This document shows, in pieces, positions 2,502 through 28,170 of a stretch of 30,896 bases of DNA (its first letter is position 1; each line of letters starts with the position of its first letter). Location of the stretch: positions 1 through 30,896 of IMG/VR virus record IMGVR_UViG_3300042563_002192; one strand, 5' to 3'. The notes below the pieces were generated by a model. It worked only from the letters and a program-made list of their open reading frames with translations, was not told the DNA's origin and searched no databases. A program made the translations under genes and the position numbers. The DNA comes from a virus.

Positions 2502-2714
2502 TTAGTCGTTAGCAAAAATACGGATGATGTCTTCGGCGCTATCAACGTAGGAAACCGTGCGTCCGTAGCAAGCCGCGCGACCACCGTCGATATTGATTTC
2601 CCATCCACCCCAAGCCTTTTTCACTTTGACGTTTTTGAAGTGGGTTTCGGCAAGGATGCGCTTAGCGAAGTGGCGGGCTTGTGTGGCGGTCAGTTTGTCG
2701 TCGGTGGTTGTCAT
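2502..2714 (-). CDS. hypothetical protein, first gene of the leftward early operon
   Basis: 70 aa, MTTTDDKLTATQARHFAKRI onward. A helical, basic first half is followed by WGGWEINIDGGRAACYGRT, which looks like a small beta sheet. No family is recognised. It is the first gene downstream of the leftward promoter facing the repressor gene. Its leader of about 40 nt ends in ACCAACCGACCAAACCAA and has no Shine-Dalgarno sequence. In this position it may be a Cro-, antirepressor- or host-takeover-type product, but the sequence does not show which. Confidence 0.6.
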   Translation of the reverse strand: MTTTDDKLTATQARHFAKRILAETHFKNVKVKKAWGGWEINIDGGRAACYGRTVSYVDSAEDIIRIFAND

Positions 2715-2758
2715 TTGGTTTGGTCGGTTGGTATTGCAGCGCGTCGGCTGATGTGAGG

Positions 2759-2786
2759 AAGATACAAAACCCGCCCCGTGTTGCAA
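2759..2786 (-). promoter_or_regulatory. leftward early promoter
   Basis: On the minus strand, an A-tract is followed by CTTGCAA. The -35 TTGCAA (2781-2786), a 16-nt spacer and TATCTT (2759-2764) form the promoter. The same A-tract plus TTGCAA plus 16-nt spacing recurs at 24.43 and 25.97 kb. The spacer contains GGGGCGGGT, mirrored in the facing promoter. Confidence 0.55.
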
Positions 2787-2873
2787 GTTTTTTTTGCATT
2801 ATTCTCACGGGAAAGCGCAATGCCTTGTTTTTCAACGGGTTGTAACGTGCAAGAATTTGTTGCGGGGGCGGGT
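2769..2873. promoter_or_regulatory. candidate operator pair in divergent promoters
   Basis: The 9-nt block ACCCGCCCC at 2769-2777 is perfectly inverted as GGGGCGGGT at 2865-2873. One copy lies in the spacer of each of the two facing promoters, which makes it a natural candidate for the binding site of the repressor encoded at 2894. This is inference from position and symmetry. Confidence 0.4.
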
Positions 2874-2887
2874 CGGGATGGTAGAAT
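2860..2887 (+). promoter_or_regulatory. rightward repressor promoter, leaderless
   Basis: TTGCGG (2860-2865), a 16-nt spacer and TAGAAT (2882-2887). Only 6 nt separate the -10 box from the ATG at 2894, so the predicted first transcribed base is the A of the start codon, as for lambda cI from PRM. Confidence 0.6.
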
Positions 2888-2893
2888 TGCAGC

Positions 2894-3094
2894 ATGACGC
2901 AAGCGCAAATCAAGAAACTCGCTGAAAAGTGGCTGAAAGCATCGCCTCCTACGGGTTGGGGGCGTCGGACTAAAAGCCTGCTGGCGGAAAGGTCCGGCGT
3001 TTCAGTGCCTGAAATCTCCCGCCTGTTAGGCGACAAGGGCAAGCCATCGGCGCGGACGCTGGCGGCGGTTGAGGCGTTTTTGACGAGCTTCTAA
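2894..3094 (+). CDS. Cro/CI-like HTH repressor
   Basis: 66 aa. Residues about 26-62 form an XRE-type helix-turn-helix: SLLAERSGVSVPEISRLLGD, then a GKPSARTLAAVEAFL helix. It is a bare DNA-binding domain with no C-terminal oligomerisation or cleavage domain, so it is nearer to Cro-size proteins than to full CI. It is the only regulator on the plus strand, faces the leftward early promoter, and shares with it the inverted GGGGCGGGT block. The start is fixed by the -10 box, which leaves no room for a leader. Its likely role is control of the lysis/lysogeny or early switch. Confidence 0.8.
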   Translation: MTQAQIKKLAEKWLKASPPTGWGRRTKSLLAERSGVSVPEISRLLGDKGKPSARTLAAVEAFLTSF

Positions 3095-3100
3095 CAAACT

Positions 3101-3171
3101 TTCTCACCACGGGGTTAACGGGCTTCATGCCCGGTGGCAAGTGTCCCGACTTGCCCGCCCTGTGGTGGGGA
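3101..3171 (+). ncRNA. three-way-junction structured RNA (or cruciform) element
   Basis: Three nested helices fit perfectly. P1 pairs 3105-3114 (CACCACGGGG) with 3158-3167 (CCCTGTGGTG) and can extend to 14 pairs with G-U. P2 pairs CGGGC (3119-3123) with GCCCG (3129-3133) around a 5-nt loop. P3 pairs GGCAAGT (3136-3142) with ACTTGCC (3149-3155) around GTCCCG. Junction strands are TTAA, GT and CG. It starts just after the repressor stop and ends 15 nt before the next ATG. No U-tract follows, so it is not a simple terminator. It is a candidate cis-regulatory RNA in the leader of the 3186 gene; a DNA cruciform is the alternative. No known riboswitch or ribozyme core was recognised. Confidence 0.6.
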
Positions 3172-3185
3172 TTCCATTCAAAGCC

Positions 3186-3512
3186 ATGACCAAACCGCAA
3201 CGCATAGCCGCATGGGAAGCGAAGATCGAGCCGATTGTTGCGGCGTTTCAGCGGCTCCGCGATGCCACCGACAACGCGCACGCTGCCGGAACGCTTGACC
3301 TTAACGGGGCGCTTTTTCAAGCAACGTGGGGATCGTTTGAGACGATGCTAAAGGTGCTAGACGCTGGCGGCTGGATATGCTGGTTCCTTTATGACAACGA
3401 ATGCGGCAAGCGCGGCTTTGAGGCTACGCCTTGCGATGGCAAGAAGGGCAGGAAGGTCCGCACGCCTCACCAGCTTGCGCGGTTGATTGTTGAGTGGGAG
3501 GATGGGCAATGA
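3186..3512 (+). CDS. hypothetical protein, rightward cassette
   Basis: 108 aa from the ATG at 3186 (MTKPQRIAAWEAKIEPIVAA). An in-frame GTG at 3141 lies inside the structured element and would add implausible residues, so the ATG is chosen. The N-terminal 60 residues are helical; the second half has AGGWICWFLYDNECGKRG and a basic KKGRKVRTPHQLARLI segment ending in an acidic tail. No family is recognised. Its stop overlaps the next gene by 4 nt, so the two are coupled. Confidence 0.65.
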   Translation: MTKPQRIAAWEAKIEPIVAAFQRLRDATDNAHAAGTLDLNGALFQATWGSFETMLKVLDAGGWICWFLYDNECGKRGFEATPCDGKKGRKVRTPHQLARLIVEWEDGQ

Positions 3513-3736
3513 GCGATCCAACACCAAGCCGCTACCGTTGGACATGGAAGGGTGTCACGTTTGATTTTTACCGCCTATGTCGCATCCTAGGCATTAACGG
3601 CGGGCCGCAAGAACATGCGCTGAAAAAGATCATTCGCGCCGGAAAGTCGATCAAGCCAATCACTCAGGACATTGATGAGGCGATTGACTCGCTTCGACGC
3701 TGGAAGGAAATGATTGAGGAGGACGCGCAGGACTAG
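3509..3736 (+). CDS. hypothetical protein, rightward cassette
   Basis: 75 aa (MSDPTPSRYRWTWKGVTFDF). It starts at an ATGA overlap with the preceding gene. It combines an aromatic N-terminal part, a basic middle (ALKKIIRAGKSIKP) and an acidic C-terminal helix. The segment from residue 20 to 60 could be a small helical DNA- or protein-binding domain, but no family is recognised. Its 3' end runs into the convergent minus-strand gene at 3660-3881. Confidence 0.6.
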   Translation: MSDPTPSRYRWTWKGVTFDFYRLCRILGINGGPQEHALKKIIRAGKSIKPITQDIDEAIDSLRRWKEMIEEDAQD

Positions 3737-3881
3737 GCCGCCCGCCGTAGATCAAATCGACGGCTTCCCTGCGCCAATCTTCCGGCATTAGGTGGTCAAT
3801 CATCGCTTTGTCGATAAGCACGCGAAACCGCTCTTCACGGCAGGCGCAGGCGAAGTGGCAGGTGGTGCATTGCTTTGTCAT
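3660..3881 (-). CDS. small Cys-rich protein at end of the leftward late transcript
   Basis: 73 aa. CTTCHFACACREERF at residues 5-19 has four Cys with a His, a possible metal site. A helical stretch follows (VLIDKAMIDHLMPEDWRREA). The last 20 residues are antisense to the rightward 75-aa gene (77-nt tail-to-tail overlap) and are low-complexity, so the functional part is probably the first 50. It is the last leftward gene before the convergent cassette. Confidence 0.5.
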   Translation of the reverse strand: MTKQCTTCHFACACREERFRVLIDKAMIDHLMPEDWRREAVDLIYGGRPSPARPPQSFPSSVEASQSPHQCPE

Positions 3882-4381: not shown

Positions 4382-4954
4382 TCACAACCACCCCTCCGGT
4401 AAGATGCACATGCTGAAATTAACCACCCCAAGCCGGGACATTTCCGAGTCGATCAGTGCGTAGTAAGCATCCCACTGCCTAGGCGGAACGGTCAGGCAAC
4501 CTTCCGAGCTTGTCCCGTTGATCCCGCCTCGGTGGTTATTGTTCGCCACGCCGTCACGCTTTGAACGGCCTTTCTCGCCGTCACGCTTAACGGGTAAAGC
4601 CTCGCCCATTGTTGCGGGTCTGAATGCGGGATGGCCGCTTTTCTTGCCTCGCTTGTGGTATCCGCGCCGATAGGGGTAAATACCCGGCAGGACGGTGGAG
4701 ATGCCAGTTTTATAAAGGCTGGGGTCGGAGTTGAAGTTGAAGCTGGTAAACGTGCGGTCAGTGACGATGAAAGCAGCATCGTCGTAGAATCCCCGGTCAT
4801 TGCCGGGTTTGCCGAATGTTAGGGAGTAGTATCCGGGGGCGACAACTACGGTAACGGGCGCGATTTCCTTGCCCTGATCGCGGTGCCATTTCCGCATGGC
4901 AGACATGACTTTTTCGCGCGGGGCTTGCGGGCGGTTTGGTGGTATGATTGACAT
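4382..4954 (-). CDS. YkuD/DUF5675-like peptidoglycan-active enzyme, endolysin candidate
   Basis: 190 aa. The key block is NNHRGGINGTSSEGCLTVPP near residues 138-157: a conserved His, then SxGC, followed by an aromatic/helical segment. This is the His...Ser-x-Gly-Cys arrangement of L,D-transpeptidase-like (YkuD, DUF5675) cysteine enzymes. The His-Cys spacing is shorter than in classical YkuD proteins. No signal peptide is present. It lies downstream of the holin-like and lipoprotein genes, so a cell-wall role in lysis fits. A virion-associated or structural role is possible. Confidence 0.5.
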   Translation of the reverse strand: MSIIPPNRPQAPREKVMSAMRKWHRDQGKEIAPVTVVVAPGYYSLTFGKPGNDRGFYDDAAFIVTDRTFTSFNFNSDPSLYKTGISTVLPGIYPYRRGYHKRGKKSGHPAFRPATMGEALPVKRDGEKGRSKRDGVANNNHRGGINGTSSEGCLTVPPRQWDAYYALIDSEMSRLGVVNFSMCILPEGWL

Positions 4955-5331: not shown

Positions 5332-5441
5332 TGGCGTTTCCTTTCTCTTCGGGCGCATAGCCTATTGCGTTCGGGTTAGTCACTCCGACCCGCCTAGTGA
5401 TAAAGAAGCGAGGCTTTCCCCTTCGGCGGGCCGGAATGAAG
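5332..5441 (-). other. 110-nt intergenic gap
   Basis: It contains an inverted CCCGCC / GGCGGG pair separated by about 34 nt and the Shine-Dalgarno sequence of the next gene. I see no convincing promoter or intrinsic terminator. Confidence 0.4.
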
Positions 5442-8959: not shown

Positions 8960-9852
8960 AAGTTTGAGAGGATGACGGTGATTTTAATGTCGGATGTTCC
9001 GTCGATTGATTCGATTGATAGGTTTTCCGATCCAGAAATTGCATTTGATCCGGATGACGCGCCCGCTGCAATCATCATGTATTTTTTGCCAGCTGCAATT
9101 TGATAGCTTTCAAAACTGTCGTGATCCATTGACTCATTGTCGATATTCACCGCGCCCTCCAAGACCTCAAAAAGCACAGCGGAAAACGCGGACGCTTCTG
9201 GAATTGGATCGCCCCAAACGTCTTCATCCCCATCCAAAATGAAAGCTCCAGAAGTTGCGACGCCTACGGTGGTGTTGGCGCTAGTTGCCGCCGTAGTCAC
9301 TCCGGTGCATGTCCCGTTGTCCAATGATATATTGATGGTTGCGTCGTTGCCAGCGTAAATGTTTACGCCGTTGACGGTTTGCAATGGGGTGCGCGTTCCA
9401 ATGATTGCGGTGGTTTCTCCGGTGATCGGAAGGTAATCGGCTATATTGGCGTTTGCGTTCATTGCCGAACGAACCTTGCCAGCCCAAACCGCCGCCGTGT
9501 CCCCTGATGTAACTGGGACCGCAAGGGTGATTGGAGTGCTTGGGATTGTTGACCCGCTGACAACAACGGCAAGATTGCCGCTTGCTGTTATTGTTCCGGC
9601 TGCTGTTGCTGTTTCAACCTGAGCCACCCCAGCCGTCCACGCATCGCTTCCCGTGGTTGAGTTGGTTAGTAGGTTTAGATTCGCGGTTGATTCTTCGGTG
9701 ATGATCATTCGCACGGAATAGGCGGCGTCAGCGTCAGGGAATGCGATTTGTTGCGCCGATACGCCAATTTGAACATCATTCGTGACGTTTGTGGCGGTTG
9801 GCGAGGCGTTAGCTCGCAAGCCTAGGAAAGCCGACACGGAATTGAGATTCAT
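8956..9852 (-). CDS. tail protein, Ala/Thr/Ser-rich
   Basis: About 298 aa from the ATG at 9852, which directly follows an in-frame GTG. It is beta-rich and of low hydrophobicity. The central part (TSGDTAAVWAGKVRSAMNAN, then ITGETTAIIGTRTPL) resembles repeat units of the following fibre-like gene. The C-terminal part (YMMIAAGASSGSNAI) may be a separate beta domain. It is likely a fibre or tail-tip component. Its start follows TTGACACC by exactly 11 nt, a leader shared with several late genes. Confidence 0.55.
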   Translation of the reverse strand: MNLNSVSAFLGLRANASPTATNVTNDVQIGVSAQQIAFPDADAAYSVRMIITEESTANLNLLTNSTTGSDAWTAGVAQVETATAAGTITASGNLAVVVSGSTIPSTPITLAVPVTSGDTAAVWAGKVRSAMNANANIADYLPITGETTAIIGTRTPLQTVNGVNIYAGNDATINISLDNGTCTGVTTAATSANTTVGVATSGAFILDGDEDVWGDPIPEASAFSAVLFEVLEGAVNIDNESMDHDSFESYQIAAGKKYMMIAAGASSGSNAISGSENLSIESIDGTSDIKITVILSNL

Positions 9853-15510: not shown

Positions 15511-15824
15511 CGCGCTTCGTTCGTTGCCGCCAGCGCGAAATGCACGGCGATATTTCCCACGGTAACGTCGGCAATGCGGTAGTTGCGCCCGGAAATGACG
15601 CACCGCTTTTCTAGGAGTGAATAAGGGCTGGAAACGTCGCCGGGTTGCGCTGTCACCGTCGCTTGAATGTCACCTTCCAAGCCTCCCAATGCTCCCTCCT
15701 GCCCCTCACGCGCATCATTGAACACAACCGCGAATGATTGCCCCGCGCATGTCATGGTGACGGTGCCAAACGTCGTGTCTAGCTCGTCATTGCCGCCTAA
15801 AAGGAAATCGTCTAAAGCCCCCAT
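15507..15824 (-). CDS. head-tail joining protein (lambda FII position)
   Basis: 105 aa. MGALDDFLLGGNDELDTTFG is followed by a beta-rich body with RCVISGRNYRIADVTVGN, which fits the small barrel-like FII/ATL joiners that bind the head vertex. An intrinsic terminator lies just upstream, so its expression depends on read-through or coupling. The leader TTGACCCC is 11 nt before the ATG. Confidence 0.55.
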   Translation of the reverse strand: MGALDDFLLGGNDELDTTFGTVTMTCAGQSFAVVFNDAREGQEGALGGLEGDIQATVTAQPGDVSSPYSLLEKRCVISGRNYRIADVTVGNIAVHFALAATNEAR

Positions 15825-15841
15825 GCAATACGGGCGGGGTC

Positions 15842-15877
15842 AAAAACAAAACCGCCGCCCGGTTTCCCAGACGGCGG
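15842..15877 (-). terminator. intrinsic terminator with GNRA loop inside the head operon
   Basis: On the minus strand, an 11-bp stem CCGCCGTCTGG / CCGGGCGGCGG (two G-U pairs) closes a GAAA tetraloop and is followed by TTTTGTTTTTG. It lies between the 121-aa gene and the FII-like gene, so it should reduce tail-gene expression relative to capsid. Confidence 0.8.
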
Positions 15878-15905
15878 CTTCGCCAATGAATACGACGCAA
15901 GAAAG

Positions 15906-24014: not shown

Positions 24015-24386
24015 TTAGGCTGAAAAGTTCTTGGTTTTCGATTTCTCGCGGGCTTCATCGAAATCATACCCCGAATTGATCAGCACCACCATGCGGGCAG
24101 CGCGGTCATCATCCAAGGCCATGCTTCCGGTCGAACCGTCATCTTTAGTCCAGACGAGACGAAAATAACGCTCCCCGATTTCGCAGACCTCATAAAGGCC
24201 ATTGGTCAGGTGGAAGGTGTCAATGCGGGTCGCTTTTTCGCGGCGAAGCCATTCGCGGCCCGTTCCGTAGTCAATTTCATCAGCCGTGAGGAACTCGCGG
24301 CCATCAGCGGTGATTTTAGCTACCCATGTTTTTCCTGCTGCTTTTCCGCTGTATCCCTTGGTTTTTTCGATGTGGATCGTTTTCAT
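24015..24386 (-). CDS. hypothetical protein, early region
   Basis: 123 aa. It alternates strands and charged turns (VAKITADGREFLTADEID; YRLVWTKDDGSTG-like), ending in a helix (YDFDEAREKSKTKNFSA). No family is recognised. It lies between the Cys-containing gene and the SSB-like gene and has its own promoter, TTGCAA-16-TAAAAT. Confidence 0.6.
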   Translation of the reverse strand: MKTIHIEKTKGYSGKAAGKTWVAKITADGREFLTADEIDYGTGREWLRREKATRIDTFHLTNGLYEVCEIGERYFRLVWTKDDGSTGSMALDDDRAARMVVLINSGYDFDEAREKSKTKNFSA

Positions 24387-24409: not shown

Positions 24410-24437
24410 ATTTTACCCACCCCACCTACCCTTGCAA
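24410..24437 (-). promoter_or_regulatory. early promoter, A-tract TTGCAA
   Basis: On the minus strand, AAAAAAACC precedes TTGCAA (24432-24437). A 16-nt spacer and TAAAAT (24410-24415) follow. The predicted leader of about 17 nt runs to the ATG at 24386 and contains CAACCAACACCGACCA. Confidence 0.65.
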
Positions 24438-24722
24438 GGTTTTTTTGCATTGTTTTTCAGGTGGTGAATTTTTCAGAATTTCCCGAGCTTCGGCCTTTTC
24501 CCGCCATTGGCTGCGCTCGCGTTCAAGTTGTTTCGCGTGGCCCATCATGGCCACATACGAATCCGGCCAGCCTTTTTCCCACAGCTTTTGGCGGAGAGCT
24601 TCGGTTTCCGGAGCGTCTGAATGCGAAGGACCATTCATGGCGGTCAGCATCATTCGGCAATACGGGCATTTGTCGTGTCCGTATCCTTGCATCTCGGCGT
24701 GGTCGTAAGGGCATGATTTCAT
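24426..24722 (-). CDS. zinc-ribbon coiled-coil small protein
   Basis: 98 aa. CPYDHAEMQGYGHDKCPYC (residues 4-22) is a Cys/His zinc site. The second half (MMGHAKQLERERSQWREKAE) is the same LERE coiled coil found in the products at 25317-25679 and 5594-6028. Its 3' end overlaps the promoter of the next gene. It starts in a 4-nt overlap with the upstream gene. The function is unknown. Confidence 0.6.
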   Translation of the reverse strand: MKSCPYDHAEMQGYGHDKCPYCRMMLTAMNGPSHSDAPETEALRQKLWEKGWPDSYVAMMGHAKQLERERSQWREKAEAREILKNSPPEKQCKKTLQG

Positions 24723-28098: not shown

Positions 28099-28170
28099 AA
28101 AAAGGATCGCCCCTGAACGCGCTCAAGTCTGACCGATCCCAACGGGACCGCATGAGCACGCACAGGGGCG
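28099..28170 (-). terminator. leader terminator before the initiator gene
   Basis: The 5' arm CGCCCCTG (28163-28170) and 3' arm CAGGGGCG (28108-28115) form an 8-bp stem, then ATCC and TTTTT (28099-28103). The 47-nt loop contains another hairpin, GGTCCC / GGGATC, and the segment TCGGTCAGA (28128-28136). Confidence 0.65.

What the first reader, a model, noticed from the sequence alone, without database searches (positions are those of the whole stretch)
3101..3171. Clean three-way-junction RNA/DNA structure between two rightward genes
Seen: 10-14 bp P1, 5-bp P2 and 7-bp P3, all but a G-U or two perfectly paired, in 71 nt. Such regularity is improbable by chance and no U-tract is present. It could be a riboswitch-like leader of the 3186 gene, a processing or stability element, a regulatory RNA, or a DNA cruciform bound by a protein. 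I know no family with this layout and loops.
Basis: partly seen in the sequence, partly recalled or inferred. Interest (0 to 1): 0.75.

Follow-up and report, generated by a model that had tools for sequence, protein, structure and literature searches.

The report
Conserved RNA fold after phage repressor gene
A 71-letter RNA fold with three arms sits just behind a small DNA-binding control gene in a group of phages and is kept when the next gene is swapped; it is real and unclassified, but it is most likely a message-end or insulating structure and not a sensor of the following gene.

Summary
Window 3101-3171 (+) folds as RNA into a closed three-way junction: P1 15 pairs, P2 5, P3 7+1; -45.5 kcal/mol, z -5.4, none of 200 shuffles as good. 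It is the most stable 71-nt stretch of the phage contig on either strand. No Rfam family matches. Three relatives carry it almost letter for letter (67 of 71 window positions invariant, plus one inserted base) with the same fold. It travels with a 66-aa HTH gene and its divergent control region as one block (about 2707-3174). Flanking genes differ: in one relative the 3186 gene is missing and another gene follows directly, so a riboswitch of that gene is unlikely. A fourth, more distant relative (L022) shows neither HTH gene nor fold. G-U pairs favour the + strand RNA, but there is no compensatory double change, so the structural proof is incomplete. I favour a cis-acting RNA at the 3' end of the HTH message (decay barrier or insulator before convergent genes). 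The boldest open reading is an RNA-polymerase-acting element like HK022 put, which it resembles in size and position but not in fold.

The parts
3101..3171 (+). three-way-junction RNA element (P1 3101-3115/3157-3171; P2 3119-3123/3129-3133; P3 3134-3142/3149-3156)
2894..3094 (+). 66-aa helix-turn-helix protein; weak HTH_3 match (22.6 bits, cut-off 23)
2715..2893 (.). divergent control region between the leftward early genes and the HTH gene
2782..2798 (.). candidate operator TGCAA-N7-TTGCA, site kept in 3 of 3 relatives
2848..2864 (.). candidate operator TGCAA-N7-TTGCG (CGCAA-N7-TTGCG in two relatives, which makes the palindrome better)
3186..3512 (+). gene downstream of the fold, 108 aa, no family; kept in L002 and L003, absent in L004
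3509..3736 (+). 75-aa gene (phrog_2452-like, function unknown); in L004 its homologue follows the fold directly

Best explanation
It is a cis-acting RNA structure in the rightward transcript of a phage control module (divergent promoter region with paired operators, HTH gene, three-way junction). The nascent RNA folds 6 nt after the HTH stop codon. The very stable closed stem most likely defines or protects the 3' end of the HTH message, as a barrier to 3'-to-5' decay or a processing/termination-linked structure without a U-tract. That would separate HTH expression from the exchangeable one or two genes behind it and limit read-through into the leftward genes that converge on it. Shown: fold, conservation, linkage to the HTH gene, independence from the next gene. 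Inferred: that it is transcribed with the HTH gene, and the barrier or insulator action.
For: Position directly after the HTH stop in 4 of 4 phages. It belongs to the HTH block: 4 of 15 records match the fold model at about 100 bits and these are the 4 with the HTH protein; of the 11 others none shows the HTH protein and none a strong fold match (one weak, 17.2 bits, E 0.063, G009). The downstream gene can be missing (L004). The rightward genes are a short island before leftward genes. In L022, at about the same slot, there is instead a hairpin with a T-run, i.e. a terminator-like element. Other strong intergenic hairpins in this phage lie at 5380, 15817 and 28108, two of them with T-runs. 4 of 71 positions vary among four phages, against 27 of 179 in the control region (p 0.054) and 17 of 66 third codon positions of the HTH gene (p 0.0016); the inner 60 nt, a cut chosen after seeing the data, 1 of 60. 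Shine-Dalgarno-like motifs precede only 4 of 33 starts examined, so masking a ribosome site is an unlikely job.
Against: No transcript data. No U-tract, so not a standard terminator. All four substitutions keep a pair and none is compensatory; the chance of four transitions at paired sites all keeping pairs is about 0.11, and the shuffle control gives no covariation support. Only four related, recombining phages: near-identity may partly reflect recent transfer. Against the HTH gene as a whole the fold is not significantly more conserved (4/71 vs 21/201, p 0.34). A plain barrier would not need conserved loops.
Confidence: 0.42

Rival explanations
1. A nascent-RNA element that acts on RNA polymerase, like HK022 put RNA: made early in the rightward transcript, it binds the transcribing polymerase and changes pausing or termination downstream.
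For: Size (71 nt vs about 70 nt) and place: putR lies about 270 nt downstream of the PR start (PMC9378689, passages); here the fold begins 253 nt after the start of the second operator and 207 nt after the HTH start. It is indifferent to the next gene and kept almost letter for letter. That nutR/putR sit just behind the 66-aa cro gene in lambdoid phages is recalled, not tested.
Against: put RNA is two stem-loops, no three-way junction. The rightward unit is only one or two genes before convergent genes, so there is little to antiterminate. No second copy for the leftward transcript: model R1 finds only a 14.1-bit chance-level match at 4475-4535 (-).
Confidence: 0.15
2. A leader (riboswitch or protein-binding site) that controls the gene behind it.
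For: The fold ends 14 nt before the ATG at 3186 in the window; the HTH protein or another phage protein could bind it.
Against: The next gene is different in L004 while the fold is identical. No riboswitch family in Rfam matches. Shine-Dalgarno use looks rare.
Confidence: 0.15
3. A trans-acting small RNA, processed from or started within the end of the HTH gene.
For: Compact, stable, sequence conserved, follows directly on a coding end as 3'-UTR-derived sRNAs do (concept as in PMC7398697, seen in a search listing only).
Against: No sigma-70-like promoter found in 2700-3800 (host promoter type unknown); no terminator tail; no target known.
Confidence: 0.1
4. A DNA-level boundary element: a hairpin or cruciform where Erf-type annealing recombination joins swapped gene cassettes.
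For: Homology to L004 breaks 3 nt after the fold. All 3 intergenic strong hairpins in the comparable 24 kb coincide with a homology break (circular-shift p 0.002); at 15838-15845 the break recurs in all three relatives. The phage has an Erf-like annealing protein.
Against: Breaks are frequent at gene borders anyway: 6 of 14 hairpin-free intergenic gaps have one, and breakpoints were listed by hand. RNA on the + strand folds better than on the - strand.
Confidence: 0.1

Closest known systems
HK022 putL/putR RNA (RNA-mediated antitermination)
   Same: about 70 nt, early transcript, a few hundred nt after a divergent control region, independent of the next gene (passages)
   Different: two stem-loops with a triplex, not a three-way junction; acts over long distances on polymerase there, action not shown here
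Intrinsic (Rho-independent) terminators
   Same: G+C-rich stable hairpin at a gene end before convergent genes
   Different: no U-run after the stem; three-way junction; not called by the terminator scan
Processed 3' ends of Rho-dependent transcripts
   Same: 3' ends trimmed by 3'-to-5' exonucleases (PMC7815308 passages); a stable stem at a gene end would fit as a stop (recalled)
   Different: no 3' end has been mapped here; no Rho site tested
phi29 pRNA three-way junction
   Same: three-way junction RNA of a phage (recalled)
   Different: this phage has large and small terminase subunits; no Rfam match

Membership tests
Any Rfam 15 family | score at or above gathering threshold | tested here: not met
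   0 matches in the window; best E 0.28 in 2980-3300 at the permissive threshold, an off-target miRNA model
Intrinsic terminator | G+C-rich stem at a gene end | tested here: met
Intrinsic terminator | U-run directly after the stem | tested here: not met
   GGGGA-UUCCAUUC at the end of the stem; not called
put RNA | two tandem stem-loops | tested here: not met
   three-way junction closed by a 15-pair stem; definition
put RNA | early transcript, soon after the promoter | tested here: inconclusive
   207 nt after the HTH start; promoter not mapped
put RNA | suppresses pausing and termination by binding RNA polymerase | not testable with these tools
   needs transcription assays
Riboswitch / leader of the 3186 gene | stays with the gene it controls | tested here: not met
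   L004 keeps the fold without the gene
Structured RNA family | compensatory base changes | tested here: inconclusive
   0 pairs with changes on both sides, but only 3 distinct rows with few changes
Structured RNA family | copies outside this phage group | tested here: not met
   exact patterns find only the same 3 contigs in viral contigs; 3 Lactiplantibacillus hits of a loose pattern do not fold alike; none by blastn in phages or plasmids

The most novel reading that the evidence does not exclude
A new class of phage RNA that acts on the transcribing polymerase, a three-way-junction counterpart of put RNA in the slot behind a Cro-like gene, exchanged between phages together with its HTH gene and operators as one regulatory cassette.
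Probability: 0.1. Interest if true: 0.75.

Novelty: new member of a known kind. Interest (0 to 1): 0.33.

Why it matters
It gives an unclassified, very stable phage RNA element that is tied to a repressor-type gene and not to the gene it precedes, so a regulatory cassette (operators, HTH gene, RNA) can be tested as a unit. If it acts on polymerase, it would be a rare case of RNA-only control of transcription in phages.

Tried and rejected
Rfam at gathering and permissive thresholds: nothing. Blastn of the element or its neighbourhood in phage and plasmid records: nothing. Loop-only pattern with free stems: first written one base wrong (0 hits, so uninformative), repeated correctly: only the 3 known contigs. 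Genome pattern scan: 3 Lactiplantibacillus loci whose stretches fold differently, taken as chance. HTH alignment search: the same 3 contigs. A second copy in the window or in more distant Erf relatives: none above chance. Hidden coding: no forward frame stays open in a shared way across the fold in all four phages; one reverse frame is open through it in all four but with different ends, so coding is unlikely, not excluded. Structure models of the two neighbour proteins were of modest confidence (pLDDT 68.0 and 64.5) and not searched further. Host: not found; protein hits in phages and plasmids are distant.

Results that weaken my reading: the covariation control is null; whole-fold conservation is not significant against the HTH coding sequence as a whole (4/71 vs 21/201, p 0.34). 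In the breakpoint test I copied HSP ends by hand, dropped ends at piece edges and short HSPs of low identity (around 9247-9803 and 9473-9657), and used 3174 in place of 3211 for L004, so its p value is indicative only. The 60-nt core was chosen after seeing where changes lie.

Full report
What is there. The window is a 30,896-base virus record with large and small terminase subunits, portal, head protease, major head protein, tape measure, Erf-like annealing protein, O-like initiator and DnaC-like loader, i.e. a tailed phage. Almost all likely genes run leftward; 2894-3736 is a short rightward island: a 66-aa HTH protein (weak HTH_3), a 108-aa protein without family, and a 75-aa protein related to phrog_2452. 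Between the first two lies the reported element.

Observation. 3101-3171 folds into a closed three-way junction, -45.5 kcal/mol, z -5.36, 0 of 200 shuffles as stable. Among all 71-nt stretches of both strands (step 5) it is the lowest, and it persists in a 414-nt transcript context. The + strand folds better than the - strand both as RNA (-45.5 against -33.3) and as single-stranded DNA (-22.2 against -18.6). RNA and DNA values use different parameters and are not comparable with each other; the strand difference comes from the G-U/G-T pairs.

Relatives. Three viral contigs hold a near-identical HTH protein (94-98%). In 3 of 3 the fold follows directly after its stop; they fold to -46.0, -44.4 and -45.5. 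L004 is identical over 71 nt; L002 differs at 2; L003 at 3, plus one inserted base. Over four phages 4 of 71 positions vary, against 27 of 179 in the control region, 21 of 201 in the HTH gene and 17 of 66 of its third positions. Fisher p values: 0.054, 0.34 and 0.0016. All four changes are transitions that keep a pair (with the inserted base of L003 placed as; in the alignment one L003 cell is unpaired), but that has a chance of about 0.11, and no pair changed on both sides. So the sequence is clearly conserved; structure-specific selection is plausible but unproven.

Block structure. The shared stretch runs from about 2707 to 3174. To its left, 2272-2705, which holds gene 2502-2714, is not matched in the relatives by blastn; to its right, L002 and L003 keep a 79-80% identical 3186 protein, and the 3509 gene has no match behind it, while L004 has lost 3186 and carries the 3509 homologue directly behind the fold. 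Terminases of L002 and L003 are only 30-31% identical to the window's, L004's 86%, although most matched pieces of the early region are about 84-98% identical as DNA: these phages are strong mosaics. Of 15 records tested with the model R1, 4 match at 99-103 bits, one weakly (17.2 bits) and 10 not at all; the 11 non-carriers also show no HTH protein at E 0.1 (several are short fragments, so absence is weak evidence). L022 is informative: it keeps the Erf gene (76%) and the leader at 2707-2730, but by R1 and A2 it has neither HTH gene nor fold, and on the rightward strand of the corresponding slot has a hairpin with a T-run.

Control region. Two sites YGCAA-N7-TTGCR at 2782 and 2848 lie in or at the edge of the divergent region; both are kept in 3 of 3 relatives, one with a change that improves the palindrome; a third copy is at 24433. 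They are good candidates for operators of the HTH protein; binding was not tested.

How it works. The fold goes with the HTH gene and its control region, not with the next gene, and lies at the 3' end of the HTH coding region in front of exchangeable genes and then convergent ones. My preferred reading is a cis RNA that sets the 3' end or stability of the HTH message and insulates what follows (0.42). Rivals are a put-like polymerase-acting RNA (0.15), a leader of the next gene (0.15), a small RNA (0.10) and a DNA boundary element (0.10). For the last, homology breaks coincide with all 3 strong intergenic hairpins in the first 24 kb, but also with 6 of 14 hairpin-free gaps.

Comparison with the known. 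No Rfam family matches. Papers: for put RNA I read passages of PMC9378689: two put RNAs of about 70 nt, two stem-loops, putR about 270 nt behind the PR start. For processed 3' ends, passages of PMC7815308. Literature searches (listings only, apart from these two papers) showed no description of this element; this covers only the open library and those terms.

Verdict. A real, conserved, unclassified RNA structure of a phage control cassette; an ordinary kind of thing with one interesting alternative. Interest 0.33.

Noticed in passing
window 2782-2798, 2848-2864, 24433-24449: Repeated palindrome YGCAA-N7-TTGCR, two copies at the divergent control region (kept in 3 of 3 relatives), one far away at 24433: probable operators of the HTH protein.
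   Followed up: partly
window leftward strand near 24223, 20073, 19776, 12816, 9871: TTGACACC, in four of five cases TTGACACC(C)GCC, shortly before start codons of leftward genes; could be a promoter or a translation-start motif.
   Followed up: no
whole window: Only 4 of 33 start sites examined have a Shine-Dalgarno-like motif; several leaders read ACCAAACCAATG-like.
   Followed up: no
window 5380-5439, 15817-15884, 28108-28170: Other strong intergenic hairpins (leftward strand), some with T-runs; homology breaks with the relatives fall at the first two, and at 15838-15845 in all three.
   Followed up: partly
window vs L002/L003/L004: Strong mosaicism: early region mostly 84-98% identical where matched, while the terminase is 30-31% identical in two relatives and 86% in the third.
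   Followed up: partly
L022 1270-1915 (leftward strand of the locus): About 600 nt with little coding, including a terminator-like hairpin, in the slot where the window has the HTH gene and the fold.
   Followed up: partly
L023 8041-8116, L025 5886-5961: A similar long hairpin with a T-run and differing arms, shared by two distant Erf relatives; not related to the fold studied.
   Followed up: no
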